From Apostichopus japonicus (Eukaryota; Echinodermata; Holothuroidea; Aspidochirotida; Stichopodidae), in contig NC_092564.1 of assembly GCF_037975245.1 (NCBI RefSeq), positions 10,950,484 to 11,014,483 on the forward strand: a stretch of 64,000 nt of DNA. Direction: 5' to 3'. Below the pieces are notes generated by a model. That model ran no database searches, had not been told where the DNA came from, and saw only the letters and a program-made list of their open reading frames with translations. Below are positions 6,299-61,500 of the stretch, in pieces; positions within the stretch are counted from its first letter, which is position 1; each line of letters opens with the position of its first letter. The position numbers and the translations under genes were made by a program.

Positions 6299-8428
6299 TC
6301 AGGAATCTTTCTTTGACATCCTTGCGACTATGCAGTAGAAAGGATGGCTGAGATTCGGCCATTCTCTCGAATCCTCTACCCACACATTCTTCTTCAAGTC
6401 AAGTTTGTGAGCCTTGCCTGTCTTACTGGCATCCGCGGTCGTAGTTTCAAGGCCATTCTCGCCACCGAAGACATACAATGTCCCATTATTCGAAACGACC
6501 TGATAGCTCATACGTCCTTCCGGGAGCTCTGGTCCAAACCGCCATTCGTTTTCGTCTGGGTTGTAAATCTCGACAGATTTCAACATGTTTTCTGGATCCT
6601 TGTCGTCCTTAGCCACATTGCCACCAATGACGTATATTTCACGGTTGAGTACCCCGACGCCAGCACACGATCTCGGTAAAATCATGCTAGCTACGGTCTC
6701 CCACGAATCTATACGTGGATTGTAACAGTGGACTGTGTCTAACGTCTGGTCGTTCGTTTCACCACCGATACAGTACAATCGACCAAGTACTGCTGCCGAA
6801 CAGTGTTGCTTGATAGGCTTGGGTAAAGGTGCTATAAACCTCCACGAATTGGTAGCTGGGTCGTAACACTCCGCACTATCCAGAGCACCCTCAGCATTGC
6901 AACCTCCTGTGGCATACACGGTACCATCCATAGATGTCATGCTAAACAGCGATCGTTGCACATTCATCGACGACCTTGGCAGCCATTTTCTTTCAAAGTG
7001 ATCGTAGAGAAAGATCCCGCCTCGTCGATAAGATGTGTACGTACGTCGACTGCTGCCGTACTCGGGAGGTTTTCGGCCAGCCACATATATATTATTTTCT
7101 CCGGTAACTGCGCATGCTGCAAACTCCATCATGTCCGGTAGTGCCTTGACACGATAGGTATCACTGTTCAGTGATGCTGCGATAGCCTCAGTATGATTGG
7201 CTAAAAACACAAACATATCACTAAAGGGCATCCCTTTACGGGTGACTGTGTTGATATTACTCAGGTCGAGGTCTTGCCTTCTTTCCCTCAGTACATGGTA
7301 TTGGAGAGCGCGATCAATCATCTGCTGACATGAGCTGTTGCTAGACACGATGCGATCACGCTCAACCACGTCATGGATAAAGTATGGACTCGTTAAAGCA
7401 AACCGGACATTACGCAAAACATCAACGAGATCGTACTTTCTATTATCGATATCACCTCTTATCCATGTTAAGGCAGCTTCGTAGACGGTTTCCTCTCTGT
7501 CGACATTCAGGTCATCCTGAGAGAGAAGGTCGATAACCTTATCTTTGGAGAGACTTAAGAACTCCTCCTCCTTGAATACCTGGTTGAATCGATCACAAAC
7601 CAGCTTCTTGGATTGTTCCTGGAGATTATTACAGTCATGAGCCGCAGCAAAGAAATATATACCGATGCAATTACCAACGGTCACATGATGTTCCAGGAAT
7701 CGTGCACATGCGTCCCGAAGGTTGTTAATTTGAAACATGTTAACCGCTAGCATCAGTCCCTGTACGTTGTCCTCGTTGATTTCAATTTCAGCAGAATACG
7801 CGTACTCTAATATAAGTTTCATCGATGCTGCATCGATTCCACCGATCGAAATTCTGTCCTGATGACTCTCAACGAGTCCACTTGAAAACATGGCGTGAAA
7901 ATATGGACTGCATGCAGCTAATGTCAAACGATGGCACTTGAATTCTTGGTCTTCAACTTCCAAGATAACATCAGTTAAAAGGTCGTCTTCCCACATTTTA
8001 AGCATCTCTTTTAATACAATTGATTTATGTTTTTCGTCTACAAACTTGTATTTGTCTGGGAAGCAACCCATTTCATCAGCTTTATCGGCAACTTTGCTGT
8101 CAGAATCTACACTATTGGCTGATACTAACTTTCCTTGTGATGATCCAGAACCTCGTTTGTCGTCCAATCCTTCGCTAAACTTTTCAAGGCTTGCCAAAAC
8201 AGATGCCAACGACGCACTTGCGGATGAGGCGGAAGATGAGCCTTCCCTAGCCTCTCTATCTCTGGAACTCATGCTGGAGTAATTTGTGGAAAATGAAAAA
8301 GAAGCAGATGGAGAGCTAACGATCATGCTCCGTCTGTCACGTGGTCTGTAGCTAGGTACGGAGTAGTCACTGTCAAGGAGTGCTGCTGCTGCAGATCCAT
8401 CCATGACCGACTTGGCGTTACGTCTCAT
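6299..8428 (-). CDS. BTB-BACK-kelch (KLHL-family) protein
   Basis: An open frame of 709 residues. A Ser-rich, probably disordered N-terminus (about 1-125) is followed by a BTB/POZ domain (about 146-248, including LLTDVILEVEDQEFKCHRLTLAACS written here only in part as 'LTDVILEVEDQEFKCHR' and 'SPYFHAMF'), a BACK domain (about 253-355, with 'NCIGIYFFAAAH') and a C-terminal kelch region (about 436-700) with double-Gly blade motifs at 508, 555, 602 and 655. Members of this family usually serve as substrate adaptors for cullin-3 ubiquitin ligases: BTB and BACK bind cullin-3 and the kelch propeller binds the target. I could not assign an orthologue. The frame stays open for 15 codons upstream of the Met, back to a splice acceptor (ttccattag) at 8474-8475, so the exon probably begins at 8473 and the true start may lie in an upstream exon. 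No intron interrupts the domains. Confidence in family is high, in the exact start low. Confidence 0.93.
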   Translation of the reverse strand: MRRNAKSVMDGSAAAALLDSDYSVPSYRPRDRRSMIVSSPSASFSFSTNYSSMSSRDREAREGSSSASSASASLASVLASLEKFSEGLDDKRGSGSSQGKLVSANSVDSDSKVADKADEMGCFPDKYKFVDEKHKSIVLKEMLKMWEDDLLTDVILEVEDQEFKCHRLTLAACSPYFHAMFSSGLVESHQDRISIGGIDAASMKLILEYAYSAEIEINEDNVQGLMLAVNMFQINNLRDACARFLEHHVTVGNCIGIYFFAAAHDCNNLQEQSKKLVCDRFNQVFKEEEFLSLSKDKVIDLLSQDDLNVDREETVYEAALTWIRGDIDNRKYDLVDVLRNVRFALTSPYFIHDVVERDRIVSSNSSCQQMIDRALQYHVLRERRQDLDLSNINTVTRKGMPFSDMFVFLANHTEAIAASLNSDTYRVKALPDMMEFAACAVTGENNIYVAGRKPPEYGSSRRTYTSYRRGGIFLYDHFERKWLPRSSMNVQRSLFSMTSMDGTVYATGGCNAEGALDSAECYDPATNSWRFIAPLPKPIKQHCSAAVLGRLYCIGGETNDQTLDTVHCYNPRIDSWETVASMILPRSCAGVGVLNREIYVIGGNVAKDDKDPENMLKSVEIYNPDENEWRFGPELPEGRMSYQVVSNNGTLYVFGGENGLETTTADASKTGKAHKLDLKKNVWVEDSREWPNLSHPFYCIVARMSKKDS

Positions 8429-21994: not shown

Positions 21995-24900
21995 TCATTT
22001 CAAAGTGATAAATCCATCCATCTTCTCTTTAAGATATTCCACTCTTTTGGTCTCTGTCTTCAGATTACTCCATTCTTCAAATGAGATCTGAAGAAATAAT
22101 CAAAAACTCAAAACATTTTCTATTTGTTTTTCAACAAACAATGTATGGAAAATGTAGGAAAAAAGATATGGAAAATATCATATAAAGCGTAATAAATTGT
22201 TTTTGAAGGTCGTAAGGGAGCCCGCAAAGTTTACAAAAGAACTTTCACCACAACATTTATGAAGAGAGACCTACGAATAAATTATTCAAATTCATGGTGA
22301 TGGGATGGTGATGTGAGGGGCAGTTTGGGGTGTGAAGAGAGGAAAAGTGGTGTGTGAAACGAGGCAGGTTTAAACTTTGTGGTATTATGTGAAGGGGTTT
22401 GGCTTGTGAAAAGGGGTTGGTCTGCAGAGACACAATCAATCTCCTTGCCTTTTTTTTTTTTTTTTTTACAAACAACAAACATGTGCAAGTTACTCGCAAG
22501 TAGCAGGAGTAACTTGGGAGTAACTTGAGTGTTACAAGCAAAATTAACTCACAAATGCAATATTACTCTAACTTTTCAAACACAATATTCCATAGGAAAC
22601 CACATAGCTATTGCCTAGAGGACCTGTACCAAGGTTTATGGTGTCAATACAATGCTTTAGGAGTCACATGGAAAATGATATAAAACCTTTTAAATCAAAG
22701 TAGGGTTTTTTATAACATCCTCATAGCTATATTCCATATTCCACGTACACAAAAACATTATCTTTTCATCAAGAAAACTTGAAGCATCCTCTAATTTGTA
22801 GGCATTTACGGCTCCAGCTGTTAATCATATGCTGGGTCTACTGCCACACATTATCAACTACATGACATACAGTATCAAGGGAAGTACTGTACCTAAAAAC
22901 TACATGATGTAATCCTATTATTATTAACTTAAGTAATACATTGAAAATAGCCAGATGTAAAGAGGGAGGATATAGTCTTGAAATTTTGTTCAAAGTTTGA
23001 TTTTTCATTTTCTCAATCTTCGTTGCAGATTGAAAATCTACCGCAGCATGATTCTGTGTATAGTGCAAAATCAATGGAATTAGCCTATCAAGATTGGTAT
23101 CATTTGGTCTGGTTTTATAAATGAAATGCGGCTTTAAAAGGAATGGGTATCTTTTATTGGTCTTCTTTACCTGCACAACACGATATTTGAGAGACTGGAG
23201 CTGTCGCACCATTAATTGCCTTCGGCCCATTACCTCAGAGCTGCCGTAGAGATAGCTGTTAGGTCCATTAACAACTACTGCCACTCTGAAAGGTAAAAGA
23301 TCAGTATTCACATATAAGTTAATATCAATTCATAAGTAAACATAAGTAAACACTGAACAAAGATCAGCTTTTGGAATCAAAAGAATCTCCAAAGGAGAAT
23401 ACACTGTCATGCCTTGCTTAAAATCTCAGGCTTCAAATAAAAGCTCTACTGAGTCTGTTTTGGAAAACATTTATATCAATTTCCGCAAACATGGATTCAA
23501 CTGGAAGCAAGGGTAAAGCTGTAACAAAGGACTTAAGACATACAATTATAAATCACCACAGATTAAACCAAATATTACTGATACTATTGTAAAAAAAAAA
23601 AATTCAACTATATTTCATCACAGATTAAACCAAATATTACAGACACCATTGTTGTACCTGAAATTTAGTTCATATAACTTGAAATTTTGTTTGAAGGCAT
23701 ACAAGCATGTACTACTTTACCGTGTTATCCTACCCAGTTACTACCATCCTTGTGTGACACAATATACAACATTTGGTAGGCTTGCAACTAACTGCTGTTG
23801 AACTCACCGTACTGCAGTTTCAGGTAGATCTTTACACAAGGGGCTGTGGTCTCTTGAAGCACTAGAGATATTGTAATCGAGCTTAGAGAATGGTACACCA
23901 TCTTTGTCAACAGCAATCATTGCATCTAGGAGGCAACAAGAAAGGAGAAATCAGCAAAATATGCAAGTTTAACATTTTCACTTGGAAGAATATATCCATT
24001 TAATACATACCAAATGTCTTCTTAGCTATATGTCACCTAGTGAAATTGATAATTGTGAAGATTAAAAAATTCAAAACATATCATAATTTTACAAATAATG
24101 ATTCAATGAATCAAAATGGAAAACCAAGACACATTTCTGATCATAAATATTAGTCATTTCAAATATATAAATGAAACACAAATCTTGCTTTGCTTGACAT
24201 CACAAACATGCAGGTAATGATTGCAATTTGAAGGAAGCATGCTAAACAGTGCAGTATCACCTTTTTTAGTTTCTACATGAAGCACCTTTGTAAACATCTT
24301 ACAGAGGGTTAACTTAAATTGTCTTGATTCCACCGAAACTGTCACAAGGGCAGTTTATGAGTATTAGAAGCTTACCTATCACGTAGCCTGCATCCAGTTC
24401 AACATGAGACACAAAATATTTGTCATTCCCAAGAGCTGCTTCTAGCCTCCCTACGACGTCTCGATGTAGATTGCTTTTGGTAGTAGTCTCGATTTTGGGA
24501 TACCGTGCAAGATCTTCCGACAAGAAAGGTCCTTTGTAACCAGGGCATTCTAATTTAGCATAGGTATTCAGCTGGAGCAGCTTCAGCTGTAACGGAATGT
24601 GTCTTGTCTCACTAGAACCTGTAGATTAGTTGGAGTATTTAAAACACATGTGTGATATTGAGAAACATTATAAGACAAAACTCCCTCCTCTCAAGTAATA
24701 ACAATATACTGTAGCTCTTGGGATTATCTGCTTTACAAAGTAATCATCCCAGGAACAGTTTAGTGACATTCACAATTTGCATTGCAGATTTTGAAGGCCC
24801 TTAGCCCTGTCCCATATAAAATACTAGGGTTTTGTACTTAAATACAAAACCTGCTATTAATTTTGCACTTGTATAGCAATTTGCCCATTTTGTATAGCAT

Positions 24901-26777
24901 GCTGTGATGCAGTACAAGAGAAACTATTCACTGATCATATAGCAATGTACTTTACAAAGTTTGAGAATCGCGCAGCTGGCCCTAGCCTAGGATTGTGGTT
25001 ATGTCTATGACATTTAATTATGAAGGAACAAGTAGTATATAATCGATATTTCAAATCAATTGACAAAGAATGAATCTTCAAGAAAAGTTTGATGAGTGTC
25101 CTGTATCAAGTTTAATAGTCTCTTCTATTTATATAACATGGCATTGGTAGCACTTATGGGGCTTCACACTTGAGAAGGATTGGGTGGGGAGGTGAAGGGA
25201 AGGGAAAGAGGAGGTTTGGTGAGCCTTGTGGAACAGAGCATTGTATTACATAGCAACAGACAATGTGAATGTAGTTTTATTTTGAATGTAAAATTCTTCA
25301 GGATAATTGGTAGTAAGAAATAAATCTTAAGCAAGCAAATTGTTGAAACCATTGGAAGAAGAAATGAGAAGCTCTTAGACTGCATGATGACAGAGCTATC
25401 TCTCATCAAGTAGTTGTTGATCTCTATTATAATATTGTGAGGCTTCTTTAGATCTTACTTTGGGCCAAATCCTCCTTACTGTTTGTTTTGGTACAGTATG
25501 TTAAATTACTCACCCATTATTTCATCAACACTTTTGGTTGCCAACAGTTTTTTCATTTGTTCCGCAGGACAAGCATTGAACACTGCTAGGGCCAAGCAAA
25601 CTTCCATTTGCTCAAAGAAACTCAGTGAGTCAAACTCAAAGACTAGTCTCTTCACTAGCTGTGTGGGTGGTTTCAAATTAAGGACACTCATTCCAAAAGC
25701 AATCGTCTGAAGTTCAGACACTTTGAACTCTGTCATGTGACTACTCAGGTGTTCAATGATTGCATCAAATAACTCCATCTCTGGCATATGAAGGAGCCCA
25801 AAACACTTGACGATTGCAGCTACTTGTCTGCTAGAACATTCCCTGAGGTGTTCTTTGCAAAAAGATGCTACCTCTTTGCAGAGCACATAATTCTGAAACT
25901 TTGATATCCTCATATTATTCAGCAATCTAAGGAGCTGAAAGACCTCCCACTGGCTTCGCTGTTCCTCTACCTGGTAAGATACTGATCGTAAAACCAGAAA
26001 AGATCTACGGGCAGATGATACGAAGTAACTGGAGATGTCTACTAAGTCCTGAAAAGAAAAATCATCAATTAGCTCAAGTGTCTTATCCTCGAGTTTCTCC
26101 ACGAATGATGGAGAAAGGTGAAGTGATGTTTTGAGGAGCCGTTTCAGGACAAATGGATTGTTCATCTCCTTCCATCTCAGCTCCAGAACCCTCAATGCTT
26201 CTTGGGCGAGCAACGCTGAGCCTGGATGTCCGGAGAGGAGCCTGGTGTTACAGACAAGCAGAGCAAGATGACGTACAGCCACTCCTCTCAATCGTTGACG
26301 ACACTCCTTCTCCAGAAGTCTTACTGTAGGAGTTTCCACTTGCTGAAGCTTTAATATATTTATGATTGAGTTCACCAGGCTCTCTGAAGTTAACTTTGTC
26401 AAATCGGTTTCAATTGTGCCAAGTAAAGAAACGAATCTTTCATCAGAAGACAAGTCACTTTGCTCTGCATTTGAGAAAAGATTAGAATTTCTTAATGCAC
26501 TAAGGGCTATGGATGCTTGATTTCCATTCAGCTCATTCGTATGTACAAATGCCAGGATGTCCTCAAATTTCTGAGCAGACTTCAACTGGGATATGACATT
26601 GGAAGCAACATCATCTCTTTTCACTCTACTACCTTCAGCTGTTGAAGAAGATGACATTTGTCGAACTTGAGATAAGTGCGAGTCCCCACAGCATGATGAG
26701 GCTTCAGAAAGTCCTCTCTGATGAAGTCTTAGAGCTCTGAAGGTTGGGCGAATGATTCTCAAGGCTCTCTCCATCAT
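21995..26777 (-). CDS. tbrg4: TBRG4/FASTKD4, mitochondrial RNA regulator
   Basis: Five exons joined by GT-AG introns and kept in frame: 26777-25514, 24618-24376, 23925-23808, 23285-23171 and 22087-21995 (stop included). They total 1833 bp, 610 residues; vertebrate FASTKD4 is about 630. The N-terminus is Arg-rich and lacks acidic residues (MMERALRIIRPTFRALRLHQ), as expected for a mitochondrial presequence. Exon 1 carries the alpha-helical FAST_1/FAST_2-type region, with 'LEDKTLELIDDFS' and 'SARRSFLVLRSVSYQ', which closely resemble vertebrate TBRG4. The last two exons form a RAP domain (about 543-600: 'VAVVVNGPNSYLYGSSE', 'LKYRVVQISFEEW', ending 'RVEYLKEKM'). FASTKD4 is known to bind and stabilise mitochondrial mRNAs and to act in processing of transcripts not flanked by tRNAs. 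Start: tandem ATGATG after a short out-of-frame uORF. Another FASTKD paralogue is possible but less likely. Confidence 0.92.
22451..22470. repeat. Poly-T tract in last TBRG4 intron
   Basis: An uninterrupted T run (A run on the coding strand) in intron 4. It may be the tail of a retroposed sequence; no element body was recognised. Confidence 0.5.
23540..23650. repeat. Short tandem duplication in a TBRG4 intron
   Basis: 'cacagattaaaccaaatatt' occurs at about 23557 and again at about 23619, separated by a poly-A run. The flanks match partially. It lies within intron 3 (23286-23807). Confidence 0.6.
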
Positions 26778-31439: not shown

Positions 31440-31680
31440 TTTTTGTATGTATTTTAGATCCTTCTGCAAGCAGGAACTCGCAAAGAAGCCTCATTGGCTT
31501 ATCAAAGCCGCAAGCTGACAGAAGTCAGTCTGTTACATTCATATTTAACGTCCATGATTATGAATTGTCAATTGTCAACAACTCTCTAACTCGACGACAT
31601 ATATCTTGGAGTGACTCGAACTGGGGACCTTATGATTGGAAGGCACCGGCGTTAACCACTGAGCTAACACGCCCATATAT
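31440..31680 (-). mobile_element. tRNA-derived SINE
   Basis: On the minus strand 31611-31675 reads as a tRNA-like head: 'gggcgtgttagctcagtgg' contains a canonical A box and 'agttcgagtcac' is a B box, at the usual spacing. The 3' acceptor strand does not pair with the 5' end and there is no clean cloverleaf, so this is a SINE head and not a tRNA gene. Sequence down to about 31440 ('gcgagttcctgcttgcagaa') probably belongs to the body. The tail boundary is uncertain. Confidence 0.65.
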
Positions 31681-32008: not shown

Positions 32009-32014
32009 TTTATT
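32009..32014 (-). promoter_or_regulatory. Candidate polyadenylation signal (AATAAA)
   Basis: Minus-strand AATAAA about 55 bp past the stop codon of the MS4A-like gene, a usual distance for a short 3' UTR. Confidence 0.4.
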
Positions 32015-32068: not shown

Positions 32069-35000
32069 CTACACGCAACTATAGACCACATCTGCTTCTT
32101 CGTAGATAACGGATGCGTACATCGTGCTCTCGGAAGAGGCTGCTTTCACGTCTGGCTCAGTTATAGCACTTGCGATAGATTCCGGCGGAACCACGACATC
32201 TGTAGTAATCGACAAGTCATCTTTTGGTCCATGGCTTGGTAGTCGCTTCCTGCGAGGAATCGTCCACGAGGCGTAGAATCCCTATCAAAAATCAGGCAAA
32301 TAATATTTTGAGAAATTATGAAGTTTTTTTCCTGGAAATGAAATACCCGATTCAGGGATCTCGACACACGTAAGAGATTTGCCTAACTCATTGCGCCCAA
32401 AACCAAATTCTTCCGATATTGTGGATATTCAACTTACAAGACATATCAAGTGAGTAATGACTTCTGATTGCCAGTTTATACCACTTTTTGGGAATTATTA
32501 CATGTAAAGCCGTTTGGAAGTCAGTCTGCAAAATTTGGGAAAAGGGGAGGAACGAAACGTCCCCGTGACTACGGTCCTTATTGGCATAATCCATAAAAGT
32601 AATATTTCAGAAAAGGCACTATGATACAATGGTATCGACTTGAGTATAGTTCATTTGTCAACTAAAAAGAACAGTTTTAGTGAACTAAAACAGACTAAGG
32701 CAAAACAGACTAAGGCATGGGCCCACCAAACTCTCGGGTGGGGAACCTGCACATTGCGGCCCCGGATGTTAGTGCTGCCGCGGCTGTCTGTGAGTTTCGT
32801 ACGGTTCATATTCTAGTCTCATATATTCTAAATTACCTAGCTGGAAAACCCGCATTAGACAGTTACAATATGTTATACAAGGGTCTCAATAGAAGGACAA
32901 CCGAGCAAATTCGGCACGCCAAACATTTCTTTCCGGTCCACGAGAAAGCCCCCCCCCCCACAAAAAACGGGCCAAAGTCTTGAACTCAGCAGGAATTGCA
33001 GATCCAAGCCTTAGATTTGAGCACCCAATCGGCCCACCTTTCCGAATTATTACCCAATAGGCAAGTAATAGTTTGAATCTGTATGCATACTAGCCCTTGG
33101 ATCTAACCAATGTTTTCTCTGGCTTTCGTAGAAGTTGAGAATCTGATCGTTTTATACCAGGGGTTTCCTAACTGGGTTCATGAACCTCTGCAGGCAGGGG
33201 GTGCGTGAGTCCATCCCAGGAGGTTCGTGAGACGTTTCTGAATTTCAAAACTAGAGTACATTTTTGTTGAACTAAAATCTGATATACCCTATAATTTAGT
33301 AATGCACAAAAGTCGTACCTACTGTATATCGACAAACTCTTTTCGCGTTCCATACGCATATGTTGCCATAGTAGTACGGTACCGTGCATGTGATAAATAA
33401 CTGTATTATGAAACAGACACAGGCTGTTATGCGTATTATAGTATAATAATGACTCAGATCGTGTCTCGAAAAGTTGGAGGTTCGTGGATAACTCTGATAT
33501 CCACAGGGGGTTCGTGGGGGCATAAAGTTAGGGAAACCCTGTTCTATACAATGCAAACTGAGTCACCCTATAGGCTATACTGACCTCCGGCTGGGGTTGT
33601 GCAGTTTGGTAAATAGTATGGTAGAAGATTAATATTGCTCCAATAACACAGGAGGATACTTGCAACGAATATGTGCAGCACAGGATAGCATATGGGCCAC
33701 CAAACGGCGCAGATGAGCCAGCACCAGTGGCCAGTAAGAAACCATCAGTTTCATTCTGTGCAACATGTAAAATAGAAGGAAAGTAATTCTAAAAGAATTT
33801 CGGCTATAATATGTATTATTACAAAATAAATAAATCAGTAACAGAAAACTAATATTGGAATGAATTTTGACTTAACAGAGCCGCAAAGGAGTTATGGTTA
33901 AAGCCATGCAAAATGACATCACCAGACACCAGGGCCTTTAACGTCTGGTGGGGTGTGGGGGGGGGAGAATAGTTAGGGAAATGGGTAAGCATATCTTACA
34001 ATAGTATACTTATGTCCAACGATGAAACATGCATGTATCGCACTTATGTGGACAATTTACAGTCTCAACGAGAAATGTCAAGTCATTCGTATTTTTACTC
34101 TCACACTTTTTACTTTAGAAAACTCACGTCAAATTTGTCGACCGTAACTCTTTGGTGCTAAATGTATCATGAGCCTTAATACTTATGTAATTAAGTTATT
34201 ATTAAATAGGTAATTATGGTGAATGTTTGTGATGCGGAATCACGCAACTTCAGAAATTTACTGTAAGTTATTTGATGCAGACAAATTAGGACTAAGTTAC
34301 TTAAAAGGAGACACAAACCTCGCGCGGGGAGTTGTTCTTCAAAAACATCTCTGTCATTTATAAGCCAAAGATCATGGTTGGATGTGTGTTCCGTATAAGC
34401 CAATTAACCATTAACACTTCCATGCTTTGACTTTTACTAGTGGGCTTTATTTAGCTTTGTATCCACCCCGTTTCCGGTTACCATTTAAAATATATTAATT
34501 TATGGAAAACCAAGTTGCTGTCGATATAAAACTATAGTACGTTTCAACTAAAAAGGATGAATTTGACGTCTCATTGCATGTCTATACTTACTGTTGTGGT
34601 AGCATTGGCTTCCGGAGACACTTCAGGTATATTGGATACAATGATTAAGATGAGACAGGTTGCTGTTGAAACCGTAACTATGCAAGATGATACCATGAAA
34701 CACTGTAACTGTAGGTATAGGACAAAAACAAAGTCGATGGGTCTATTGCAGCCAAACCTGCAATCCGATATACTATATATGTATTGAGTACATATGGTCA
34801 TGAGAGCAATTAACTGGATAGAGAACGAATAAGTTACAAAGGTTATGATAATAGGGGAGGAAAGGGGTTAAGGAGGTTGTAGGGGGAAGACAGAAAACCC
34901 GGCGGTGGTTTTCTCTAAAAGAATTTTAGTTATTAAATGTTACAGTGTTACATTGCAAATGTCCTCTTTCTTTCTCAAAATTTCGACGAATGTATTTTCT

Positions 35001-37524
35001 TTAGAAATTTTCCCTTTTTTTCTGGAAATTCGACCTTTTTATATTATGATAATGTAACAATAATTATAATATTAATAATAATAATAATGATATTATTATT
35101 ATTAATAATAATAATTTTAATAATAATAATAATAATAATACCAAGACAAAATTAATATTTTGAAGAAGGCAAGAAGAGCTCTCGCCGATAAATAATACTG
35201 TATCGTGTATGCCCTGTCAAAAACAGACTTAAAGGAAAATAGAAAATGGAGCCGGCAGGTTCAAGATTTATATCAGGCTGGGACAAAACTTCGTCGTTGG
35301 TGGAGCATGGAGAGGAAGTGATGGAAGACCAAACAACTTTTCTTAGAGCGGGATTGGAGAGTGAAAAAACTTATCAGTTCGAGTCAGACCATGGATATTG
35401 TGATAACACTAGCCTCTTCTCTTCGGTTTCGTCATTATTTTTATATAAAACATCTCTGTCAGCCATGGTTCTGCTTGTAGTCGGGGGGGGGGGGGCTATT
35501 TTATTCAAGCCAAACTTAGATTTTACTGTTATCAAGAAAGAAATTCATCAGTGCGGTAGATACATTATTATTGATTTCCTGATTCACAATATTGTGCTCA
35601 CATTAAGTGCTATATATGCCCTAAAAATCGACTCCCCGCAATTTTTACACAGATTGCCGACAAAGCAAATTCTTTCAAAGGCGATTCCATTCTGTTTGCG
35701 GGAGATTTTAATTTTGTATTCAACTTACAACTGGACAAAATCGGTGGCCAGCCATAGACTAACTTTAAGGCACGTGATGATTGTATCGCATTGACAATAA
35801 AGATAATAATAATAATTAGAATAATAATAATTAGAATAAAAAATAATTAACTAAACCGTCGTACGTAAAACATGTAAATCTTACGATATATTTTATGAGA
35901 TTTAATTCCAAAAGTGATGAGGGTCTCAATATTTTCTGTATGTAACTTCGTCTGAGACATACCTTTGCCAATAACGTTAGCTTGATACGTATATAGAGTT
36001 GGATAAAATCTTGTTATGAACAAATTATAAACATGCCTTTCGTATCAATTCTTTACAAATGGAAGCAAGTGAATATAGGATTTATTGTCGAATTAATTAT
36101 GTAAGTTATACTTACCCTTCGCTTTATTTTCCGGCTGAAAAGACCAATGACTCCAGTGATGACCGCCAGCTTCGGAGAAATGACGGAAACATTAAAAAAA
36201 AATTATGTCATAGAAAGCAAATATTAGTCATAGACGTAGGAAGAAGTGGAGCAGAAGGTGAATTTGTCCCTTACTTTCAAAACGGTGGTTAGAAGTATTT
36301 TTGTGCCCCACCCCAACTTTTGTGATTAGAGATACACCCCACGACAGTGTTGGGTATACGTGAGAAATAAATTCGTAATTGAAATTGAAACCATATATGT
36401 TTACTCATTTAGGTGCCTGTTTATGCATTAGCATTAGCACAAAGATTACCATGGAATTGAAATGATCAATTTTTTTTTTCATAAACAGGCACCTAAATGT
36501 TTCCATAGGCAATGTTTCCCACATTTCCACAACCATATATGGGACGCCAAACGAGTAAACATATATGGTTTCAATTTCAATTATATTTATTTCTCATATG
36601 TTTGTATAAGATAAATACAATACAGTACAATACAATACAATACAATAGGGAAGGTTAACATATTAAGGACACTAGAAAAGCAGCAATGCTGTTATCTTAA
36701 CTCGCTAGTGACCATGATGACATGACATGATATCCAAATAGACATTTCTATAATCTTAAATCTTAATTGATATGTTGCTCATGCATGTAAACTGGTAAGT
36801 TTGTATTTAGGGTTACATATTGAAATAATAGTAAATAATAAATTCAGAGCCCTATTCCGTTTGCCATGTCATATACGTGCCTGGAAAAGGGGGGAAAAAA
36901 GTCTATACATATGGAAGGAGAAATGTATGATTAAAACTACCGAGTAGTAAATTCACCTAATTGAGTGGTACCGTACTATATATTTTACGATTAGTCACGG
37001 TGGAAGTCTGTATATGCCCATATAGCTTATACATTCGTTTGCTGTACTGTAACAGAAATCAGGTGACCTTCCCTGTGAAAAATCACCTGTAAGCTATATG
37101 ACGGCGCTTTAGGAATTCAAGTAAGCCATGCTGCCATTCAGGCCTGATGGGAGGGGAGAGGGTGGACAGGGGAGGTGTCACAGCCCCGGTCCCTACATGA
37201 CTTTGGAAGCCTCGAGCTGGCTGCCACTAAGTTATGTTCCTTTCTATGATTTAGTTCAACAAACGTTAACCTCTTTATACTGTATGCATGACAAGATCAA
37301 ATGAAGCTGGATCTTACCACTCCGTTCCAAGTATCTAACGCTGTGGAGATCAACAAGTCTTCTTCATACCGCTTCGTCATAATCATTGCTCTGCCCACGA
37401 TTATGTCCACCAAACCACACATCATAATCAAGATTCCAATGGAAGATATCACGCGAGCACTCGGTCGGTCGATTTTAATAGTATGTGAAGTCACATAGTA
37501 TTGCTTGTTATTGCGGCGAAGCAT
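32069..37524 (-). CDS. MS4A/CD20-like four-transmembrane protein
   Basis: Reconstructed from five exons, all phase 0 with GT-AG sites: 37524-37318, 36169-36116, 34708-34592, 33755-33585 and 32281-32069 (with stop); 253 residues. TM1 is about 25-44 ('VISSIGILIMMCGLVDIIVG'). The junction of exons 1 and 2 reads 'LDTWNGVLAVITGVIGLFSR', the W-x-G-V..ITG TM2 pattern of CD20-like proteins. TM3 is about 90-113, starting after 'KRRLQCFMVSS'. TM4 is about 147-177 ('PYAILCCTYSLQ', 'VIGAILIFYHTIY'). The TM3-TM4 loop has two N-glycosylation sequons (NAT at 122, NET at 127), consistent with an extracellular loop. The tail ends 'MYASVIYEEADVVYSCV'. MS4A proteins act in membrane signalling and receptor complexes. 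An alternative TM3 acceptor would drop two residues. Start: Met at 37524 follows an in-frame stop 16 codons upstream; a further 5' exon is possible. No orthologue is assigned. Confidence 0.82.
33158..33541. mobile_element. Non-autonomous hAT-type element
   Basis: The ends are imperfect inverted repeats ('caggggtttcctaact' left; 'agttagggaaaccctg' right) of the CAGGGGTT type typical of hAT elements. It is flanked by an 8-bp target duplication with one mismatch (ttttatac at 33150-33157, ttctatac at 33542-33549). At 384 bp it encodes no transposase. It sits in the last intron of the MS4A-like gene, ending 43 bp from exon 4. Confidence 0.85.
35060..35146. repeat. (AAT/ATT)n simple repeat
   Basis: Mixed ATT and AAT triplet runs in the intron between exons 3 and 2 of the MS4A-like gene. 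A hydrophobic Ile-rich ORF here is a composition artefact. Confidence 0.85.
35400..35812 (+). pseudogene. LINE APE-endonuclease fragment
   Basis: 'HGSACSRG', a poly-G frameshift, then 'AILFKPNLDFTVIKKEIHQ', 'GRYIIIDFLIHNIVLTLSAIYA', and after another frame change 'GDSILFAGDFNFVFNLQLDK' and, past a stop, 'FKARDDCIALT'. This matches the N-terminal AP-endonuclease domain of L1/Tx1-like LINEs, including the GDFN catalytic motif. Frameshifts at the G run and around 35660, and an internal stop, make it non-functional. It ends in an A/T-rich simple repeat. It is in an intron of the MS4A-like gene, antisense to it. Confidence 0.8.
36361..36596. mobile_element. Foldback element with nested inverted repeats
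   Basis: Outer arms of about 44 bp (36361-36406 and 36553-36596) are inverted copies with few differences; each contains 'aaccatatatgtttactc' or its complement. An inner perfect 20-bp pair ('catttaggtgcctgtttatg' at 36406-36425 and its complement at 36480-36499) lies within them. No ORF. It looks like a MITE or foldback element lying 191 bp from the short TM2 exon of the MS4A-like gene. Confidence 0.75.
36612..36650. repeat. (TACAA)n simple repeat
   Basis: About seven near-perfect copies of a pentanucleotide immediately past the foldback element. Confidence 0.8.
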
Positions 37525-58500: not shown

Positions 58501-61500
58501 ATAAACACTTTCCTGTATGGTCACATGACAATAGCATTAAGTCACAGGTGATATCAACACGTTATGTATGTGACTCTGGAGCCATTTCTAACAGATATAG
58601 ATTGCAGGTGAAAAATATAGAATAGTTTAGTTTAGTTTAGTAGAAAAAAAGGATCAGGAGGGAATCAATAATTTTAATTTCCAAACTATGAGTTTTCTAA
58701 AATAAAGTCTGTGCCATCTGTTCTATATGTTCCTTACTCATCATATTAGGAGGGCATTGTGGTCAAGTGGTTAAGGCAGTGGACTTGTGATCTAAGGATT
58801 ACAGGTTCGAGCCCTGGCCAGATCATTGCGTTGTGTCCTTGGGCAAGGCGCTTTATCTCCATTGCCTCTCTTCACCCAGGTGTATAAATGGGGACCTGCG
58901 AGGTAACTTGTAAATATAGTTGCGTGCGCCGGTTTGTGGCTGCACCCTATGGGAAGTCCCCCGTGGGACACATGGTTGTGGTGCACTGTGGTGCCCCAGG
59001 AGAGATTGATTGAATTGTGCACACTTTGGTGTGTGGGTGTGACAAGTTACCAATGACCAGGGGTTAAGTTATTAAGTCGTGTGAGGAGGCATTAGCCTCA
59101 TACAAGACTGTAAACCTTCAACTTTAACTTTTAACTTTTACCAATCGTATTATTTAAAATAATGAAATTTAATTTCAAGACCGTTTTTTTTTTTTAGCTT
59201 TTCATTACTCATTTGGACATAACTTATACATCTGTACTGTAATGCATTACCATAGATGTATATGAGCATCTCCTTATGAAATGATGTGTAATAAGGATAA
59301 AAATTTTGTAAACTGTTGAAGTCTTAAATTGATACGATTAATCAGGCTAGTCAAATTCTCATATTATTTACCTTGTTACTATTTAAATAGCTCAACATCC
59401 AGAAGCTGCAATCCAAGGTTCAGAATTTACAGCTGCTGTTAGAAGACACCAAAGCTGGTAAGTGATTCTTATTAATTGTTTATTAATGGTAATTAATGGT
59501 TGTACAGAACAGATGATGTCATGACTTTGAAAAAGGAATTATCTGATTAGTGTTCTCGTCAATACCGTTTCACTATCAGCTCAAAAAATTTGATTTAAGA
59601 AGACGAAATATATTATGTTTTATATCATAGAATAAGAAAATTGTAATAATTTATTAAAATATTTAAAGTGGAAAATTTAAATAGACAAATTAATCGTTTT
59701 GATCTCTAAATTATGTATGAATATGACCTCTTGTAGATCTTCAGAAACAACACAGAATTCAAGTTGAAGAACTGAAGCAAGCTCATGAAGAAGAAATTAC
59801 TGATCTGACCACAGAACTACAGAAGAAAATAGACCATCTTGAGGTAAGATGCAGGACTCAACAGTTATACTCAATTCCGGATGACATTTTTAAGAATCTG
59901 TCTTTTTAGCATTTTCTTACTCTACGCTACTTCCGTAGAGTATCCTAGACAGGAATAATTCCTTGGTTTTTAAATTGTAATGCTTTCTTAAATATCTGCT
60001 CAATTAATAACACGAAAATTGAGATAGTGAATCAGTTTTTCTGGTTATTTGTAATATGTCTCAGAATGTTTTCTTTCCATGTCTGCTTTTTTTATTAGGG
60101 CGGGGGGGGGGGGGGGGTGGGGTTGTCTACAGCTACCATTCTACTTGGTGTGGTAACACTAGAGGGGAGAGTGCATTCTGTGATAAATGAATGAAACAGG
60201 CCTGACATTCTTCATAGCTATTGTCATGAGTGGCTTAATAAATTCCCACCTGTGTTTTCTCTCTCCGTCTAATGTATCGCTGTCCCAAACTTGATATTTT
60301 TGTTTACGTATGGGCTGTATCTATCCTGTCATGATCTTATGCAGTAACACTGTGGGTTGAACTTTATGTGCTTAATATGGGCTTATATTCAGTGCATTAG
60401 TTGTTCCTCGTTCTTGCATTCTTCAAAGTTAAGTTGCGGAACATGGACAGGATTGGAAGGCATCTCAGGGTACAGTGCCAAATTTAAGATTTTTAAATTT
60501 TGTAAAATGGGTTTACAACTTTCAATAATCTGTTGTATGCTTTGGTTAGACTCTGTTTAGGCCAAATTTTATGGAAATTTATATAGTGTTATTGAAAATA
60601 TTTAAAGAAACCCCTTTTTTTGTGTAAATAGTATGAAAAAGAAAAAGGTAGGCTACTTTACATAACCACTTATCAGATACATTCTTTGGACACATTATTT
60701 GAAATATTTTGGACATAATATCCTGTTTATTAATATTGATATATGTATGTCTTTTTCATTTCAGAGTGAAGCTCTCAATCAGGAGAGAGGTTGGGCGTCA
60801 GATTCAGAGGAGGAGGGAGAGATTATCTCCAGCCCTCACTCTAGCAGCAGACAAACTCAGAGCAGGAAGTCTGTCAGGGTAAATGAACAAGATTGTTGTT
60901 ATTTCTTGTCCCTATGACAACCTAGAAATTCTCTGGTGATTGTTTGAACAGCAAAGTTATTTGTGTGTAATGTACAGTTTGACTGAGTAATCACATTTAC
61001 TTGGACTGGGATAGTTTTGGTCGCCCGACAAGATATTTAATCTCATTTCAGACCTGTCGCAAGTCATAATCCTAGATATTATTCAGTGCTGGTATAGAAT
61101 TGTACACTGCACCACTTATTCATCAGAATCTCCACAATATCTTGAAATAGTTGGTTGTGGTGATATAGAATACAGCATCAGTTACTTATTAAAGAGGAAA
61201 TATTCGGTTCAGTATGCTAGTATGGCAAAATGCACCAATTTAATTGACTGAAAAGTGAATGTGATCGCTGCTTCAACAACAGACATGATTCAATTTTAAT
61301 TTTAATTAATAAAGTCACATTATAAAGAATTTGCTCTTGGAGTAGTATATTCTCTGTTTTGTTTGTCAATGAATCACACTTAGTCTAGGAACTACAGTAC
61401 TTATCTAGTCTGTTTATCTACAAGAACTATTCACCCACTAGGATCCAAACAGGGAAAGGTATTCCTTGGAAAATTCAAGTACGAAACCTCAGATATTGGT

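What the first reader, a model, noticed from the sequence alone, without database searches (positions are those of the whole stretch)
32069..37524. MS4A/CD20-like gene hidden in short exons
No long ORF marks this gene, yet five short minus-strand exons join with GT-AG sites, all in phase 0, into a 253-residue protein with four hydrophobic segments. It has the W-x-G-V..ITG TM2 signature and two sequons in the TM3-TM4 loop. The in-phase junctions and the domain logic support each other. MS4A proteins are best known from vertebrate immune cells, so a member in an invertebrate deuterostome is useful for the origin of the family.
Basis: partly seen in the sequence, partly recalled or inferred. Interest (0 to 1): 0.78.

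Follow-up and report, generated by a model that had tools for sequence, protein, structure and literature searches.

The report
CD20-like four-pass membrane gene
An animal genome carries a five-exon gene for a four-pass membrane protein that weakly but specifically resembles the CD20/MS4A family known from vertebrate immune cells; it is probably a real, distant member and one more data point on how old that family is.

Summary
Five minus-strand exons between 37524 and 32069, all GT-AG and phase 0, join into 253 aa with four hydrophobic segments, W-N-G-V..ITG in TM2 and two sequons in the TM3-TM4 loop; AATAAA follows 54 nt after the stop. The best Pfam family is CD20, PF04103 (E=4.2e-4), but 20.8 bits is below the curated 27.9 and only TM1-TM3 match. 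0 of 20 shuffles hit CD20. Exon 1 alone and exon 1 joined to exon 3 do not hit; exons 1+2 do, at 19.9 bits, so the 54-nt exon 2 makes the signature. Against membership: a three-sequence vertebrate profile does not find the protein, PDB sequences do not match, and the usual second-loop cysteine pair is absent. No second copy was found in the 671.6-Mb genome. A 2010 survey judged invertebrate look-alikes convergent; one intron here lies one codon from a documented MS4A7 exon end, mild evidence for common descent. Verdict: probable divergent MS4A-like gene, ordinary in kind; expression and host taxon untested.

The parts
37318..37524 (-). exon 1 (207 nt): start codon, basic N-terminus, TM1, first loop, residues 1-69 ending W-N-G-V
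   Evidence: ATG context TTCAAAAATGC
36116..36169 (-). exon 2 (54 nt): most of TM2 and basic loop, residues 70-87 LAVITGVIGLFSRKIKRR
   Evidence: needed for the CD20 match; the 1 of 47 candidate exons that completes the motif
34592..34708 (-). exon 3 (117 nt): TM3 and start of second loop with sequon N122, residues 88-126
33585..33755 (-). exon 4 (171 nt): sequon N127, rest of second loop, TM4, residues 127-183
32069..32281 (-). exon 5 (213 nt): cytoplasmic tail with Y238, Y243, Y250, residues 184-253 and TAG stop
32009..32014 (-). AATAAA, candidate polyadenylation signal 54 nt after the stop

Best explanation
A real five-exon gene, single-copy as far as the search could see, for a divergent CD20/MS4A-like four-pass membrane protein. 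Shown: the open spliced frame, the splice sites, four hydrophobic segments and the family match of TM1-TM3. Inferred: both ends lie in the cytosol, the second loop is N-glycosylated outside, and the protein works as MS4A proteins are thought to, as an oligomeric membrane adaptor that sits with receptors or channels, helps them traffic, and signals through tyrosines in its C-terminal tail (Y238-ASV, Y243, Y250-SCV).
For: Exon structure with GT-AG and phase 0; splice site ranks and AATAAA; CD20 the top family, E=4.2e-4, 2.3e-4 for the TM1-TM3 part with 0 of 20 shuffles hitting CD20; the match needs the 1|2 junction; exon 2 ranks 1 of 48 alternatives, by a slim margin (6.2 against 5.6 bits). Charges lean to cytosolic ends: 6 K+R before TM1, 3 among the 7 residues between TM2 and TM3, 0 in the second loop; the first loop is neutral with 3 K+R and 3 D+E (TM limits set by hand). 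hhalign pairs its W66 and ITG with W89 and ISG of CD20 over 68 columns, 21% identity, P=0.016. The exon 1|2 boundary is one codon from the end of MS4A7 exon 3, residue 94 (PMC10031966 passages; MS4A7 letters recalled). MS4A2 has a tail ITAM and MS4A8B an ITIM (PMC11663944 passages).
Against: Below the Pfam cut-off (20.8 against 27.9 bits) and TM4 unmatched; exons 3-5 alone match nothing; vertebrate-only profile E=2.4, ranked behind two random ORFs of the window, and the same hhalign comparison has a probability of only 2.9%; no PDB sequence at E<=10; no cysteine pair in the second loop (cysteines at 36, 90, 96, 105, 152, 153, 162, 252); no intron before TM1, where MS4A7 exon 3 starts; codon statistics do not single out the frame; no transcript evidence.
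Confidence: 0.74

Rival explanations
1. A real gene for an unrelated four-pass membrane protein that resembles CD20 by convergence in its hydrophobic segments, as argued in 2010 for invertebrate MS4A-like genes in general.
For: Sub-threshold match limited to TM1-TM3, no support from a vertebrate-only profile, no second-loop cysteines; published view in PMC2826416 (passages). Asterix and Claudin_2 appear weakly (E 0.11 and 0.12) with exons 1+2.
Against: CD20 is the best family by more than a hundredfold in E-value over the next, and 0 of 20 composition-matched shuffles hit it; the shuffles' best chance match to any family was 0.025. An intron lies within one codon of an MS4A7 exon end.
Confidence: 0.19
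2. Not a working gene: either exons picked by eye that do not belong together, or a decayed copy.
For: Codon statistics are inconclusive; no RNA evidence; no relative found in the two searches made for one (bacterial and archaeal genome contigs, where none is expected; own genome).
Against: Five open exons with well-ranked splice sites, no stops, AATAAA close behind; the family match appears only when the chosen exons are joined; no parent copy seen in the genome from which it could have decayed.
Confidence: 0.07

Closest known systems
CD20-like family, Pfam PF04103 (vertebrate MS4A and relatives)
   Same: TM1-TM3 profile match, W-x-G...I-[ST]-G in TM2, four hydrophobic segments, within the 200-300 residues usual for MS4A (PMC2826416), an exon boundary one codon from that of MS4A7
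   Different: [quoted passage not shown] PMC13079139 passages), no second copy found nearby
MS4A2 (beta chain of the IgE receptor)
   Same: Tyrosines in a C-terminal tail; two YxxV units eight residues apart, similar in layout to an ITAM
   Different: V instead of I/L in the motif (motif rule recalled); not compared with MS4A2 alone
TMEM176
   Same: Four-pass relatives of MS4A; TMEM176B has a tail ITIM (PMC11663944)
   Different: Not tested separately here

Membership tests
CD20/MS4A (PF04103) | profile match above the curated cut-off | tested here: not met
   20.8 bits against 27.9, E=4.2e-4; 21.7 bits for TM1-TM3 alone
CD20/MS4A (PF04103) | match specific to this family and not due to composition | tested here: met
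   0 of 20 shuffles hit CD20; next family for the real segment E=0.28
CD20/MS4A (PF04103) | match to known vertebrate members themselves | tested here: not met
   three-sequence profile E=2.4, hhalign probability 2.9%; no PDB chain at E<=10
CD20/MS4A (PF04103) | four membrane spans with cytosolic ends | tested here: inconclusive
   Four hydrophobic segments, charges lean the right way; no topology predictor run, TM2 hydropathy is modest (peak 1.5)
CD20/MS4A (PF04103) | TM2 signature (GYPFWG, FIISGSLS in PMC11663944) | tested here: inconclusive
   WNGVLAVITGVIGLFS across exons 1 and 2 keeps W-x-G and I-[ST]-G; GYPF is absent
CD20/MS4A (PF04103) | TM1 LGAxQI motif (PMC11663944) | tested here: inconclusive
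   SIGILIM at that place: the G is kept, the Q is I
CD20/MS4A (PF04103) | two cysteines in the second loop (most members; MS4A8B and MS4A12 lack them, PMC11663944) | tested here: not met
   No cysteine between 105 and 152
CD20/MS4A (PF04103) | shared intron positions | tested here: inconclusive
   One of two documented ends of MS4A7 exon 3 lies within one codon; the other has no counterpart
CD20/MS4A (PF04103) | CD20 fold | not testable with these tools

The most novel reading that the evidence does not exclude
The gene belongs to an invertebrate and is a true homologue of vertebrate MS4A, so that the family, its TM2 exon boundary and its tyrosine-bearing tail are older than vertebrates and than adaptive immunity, against the published view that invertebrate MS4A-like genes are convergent.
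Probability: 0.45. Interest if true: 0.55.

Novelty: new member of a known kind. Interest (0 to 1): 0.36.

Why it matters
The one survey of the family's origin seen here places it in jawed vertebrates and calls invertebrate look-alikes convergent (PMC2826416, passages). An intron-bearing gene with a specific, junction-dependent CD20 match gives a character, intron position, by which common descent can be tested. If descent holds, the ancestral function was not tied to B cells or mast cells.

Tried and rejected
Paralogues: none in the window, none in about 198 kb of flanking DNA (best E=2.5; 900 bases just left of the window were not fetched), none in the whole genome at E<=10 with the protein (5 of 5 matches are the gene's own exons). 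The family search of the genome found nothing at E<=0.001, but it rang in 0 of its 14 control genomes and cannot cross introns, so it says nothing. Diverged paralogues are not excluded, since these searches see single exons.

Relatives: 0 in genome contigs, a bacterial and archaeal collection (22 pattern stretches, 0 confirmed). No animal genome collection was on hand. A regular-expression scan for the TM2 string elsewhere in the window (1 unrelated plus-strand match at 60444) has no power, since the string spans an intron.

Literature: ten searches, of which the listed rows were seen. No paper held pairs 'sea cucumber' with 'membrane-spanning 4-domains'; of 2 that pair 'sea urchin' with 'membrane-spanning 4' one is the coral paper cited. 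Apart from PMC2826416, which used a sea urchin sequence as outgroup, no listed title concerns an echinoderm MS4A gene. Passages of PMC8776166, PMC7776563, PMC7067487, PMC5117596, PMC9290968 and PMC2967469 were seen and gave nothing used here; PMC3711070 held none of the terms. Exon limits in residues were found only for MS4A7 exon 3.

Codon bias as a coding test: inconclusive. A vertebrate-only profile as an independent membership test: not significant, counted against.

The chance that one of four introns in 759 nt falls within one codon, same phase, of one of two given sites is about 3% (own arithmetic). The phase of the MS4A7 boundary is inferred from whole residues 50-94 and 135 nt (318 less 183 bp); a split codon at 94 would read the same.

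Full report
Observation. Each is a multiple of three, each junction is GT-AG in phase 0, and the joined frame is 253 residues. Hydropathy shows four segments near residues 25-44, 63-83, 91-112 and 149-171; the second is the weakest. Two sequons, N122 and N127, lie in the loop between the third and fourth. The four donors rank in the top 0.2-2.2% of GTs on the strand and the four acceptors in the top 5-17% of AGs; an AATAAA begins 54 nt after the stop.

Is it chance? The four longer exons are each open in a given frame in 2-12% of random window segments of their length (the 54-nt exon in 37%), but exons were chosen by eye, so the product is not a P-value. A fairer test is whether the joined protein carries information that its pieces do not. 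The full protein matches Pfam CD20 at E=4.2e-4. Its TM1-TM3 part matches at 2.3e-4, and 0 of 20 shuffles within segments match CD20 (limit E=10, though HMMER's filters drop most matches above about 0.1); the best shuffle match to any family was 0.025. Exon 1 alone, exon 1 joined to exon 3, exons 2+3, exons 3-5, and exons 3, 4 and 5 singly give no CD20 match; exons 1+2 give 19.9 bits. Of 47 in-frame middle exons of 30-150 nt that could be spliced between exons 1 and 3, only the chosen one completes W-x-G-V-x-x-x-[IVL]-[ST]-G, and it ranks first of 48 (skipping included) on a small vertebrate profile, though only by 6.2 to 5.6 bits. Codon usage against two long ORFs of the window does not help: frame 0 is the best of six frames in 0 of 5 exons, although only 3 of 500 control assemblies reach the overall score.

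What it is. The best-supported reading is a divergent member of the CD20-like family. For it: the specificity of the family match and its dependence on the splice junction, the pairing of WNGVLAVITG with WGGIMYIISG in hhalign (P=0.016), and gene structure. MS4A7 exon 3 is 135 nt and codes residues 50-94 (PMC10031966, passages); in the recalled sequence this ends LGALC|FGITG. The window gene is split WNGV|LAVITG, one codon away in the alignment. The intron at the other end of MS4A7 exon 3 has no counterpart here. One near coincidence of two sites has a chance of about 3% (own arithmetic), so it is mild support.

Copy number. The protein finds only its own five exons in the 671.6-Mb genome (5 of 5 matches), and nothing in about 198 kb of flanking sequence. 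Human MS4A genes are clustered (PMC2826416); this one stands alone as far as exon-by-exon searches can see.

How it may work (inferred). Basic residues before TM1 and between TM2 and TM3, and a second loop with two sequons and no K or R, lean to cytosolic ends; the first loop is neutral. The tail holds Y238-ASV, Y243 and Y250-SCV. VVYSCV fits an ITIM-like pattern and YASV-x8-YSCV resembles an ITAM with V for I/L (patterns recalled). MS4A2 carries an ITAM and MS4A8B an ITIM in the tail (PMC11663944). A membrane adaptor that travels with receptors and is phosphorylated on its tail is therefore the most likely role; nothing here shows it.

Known or new. A 2010 survey found MS4A genes only in jawed vertebrates, used a sea urchin sequence as outgroup, and took invertebrate look-alikes for convergent (PMC2826416, passages). 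A coral transcript is annotated as MS4A in a table of PMC9357087 (passage). So a CD20-like gene outside vertebrates is not new as an observation; whether it is homologous is open. That the host is an invertebrate deuterostome was not tested.

Noticed in passing
33158-33541: A 384-bp element in intron 4 with inverted ends CAGGGTTTCC..GGAAACCCCTG and near-identical 8-bp flanks GTATAGAA/GTATAAAA, like a non-autonomous hAT transposon (label recalled).
   Followed up: partly
31613-31665: tRNA-like A and B boxes on the minus strand just behind the gene, as in a tRNA-derived SINE (reading inferred).
   Followed up: no
22838-26777: Minus-strand FAST kinase-like gene: FAST_1 domain in the 423-aa ORF at 25506-26777 and a sub-threshold RAP domain match in the ORF at 22838-23311.
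   Followed up: partly
6299-8428: 709-aa BTB-BACK-Kelch (KLHL-type) ORF without a break on the minus strand.
   Followed up: partly
35246-35794: 182-aa plus-strand ORF in intron 2 of the gene that reads like a LINE endonuclease fragment by eye, but 0 Pfam families match.
   Followed up: partly
58753-58825: Borderline Rfam tRNA match (29.1 bits, cut-off 29) that ARAGORN does not report; perhaps SINE-derived.
   Followed up: no
36376-36583: Inverted repeat with 50-nt arms, 84% complementary, in intron 1.
   Followed up: no
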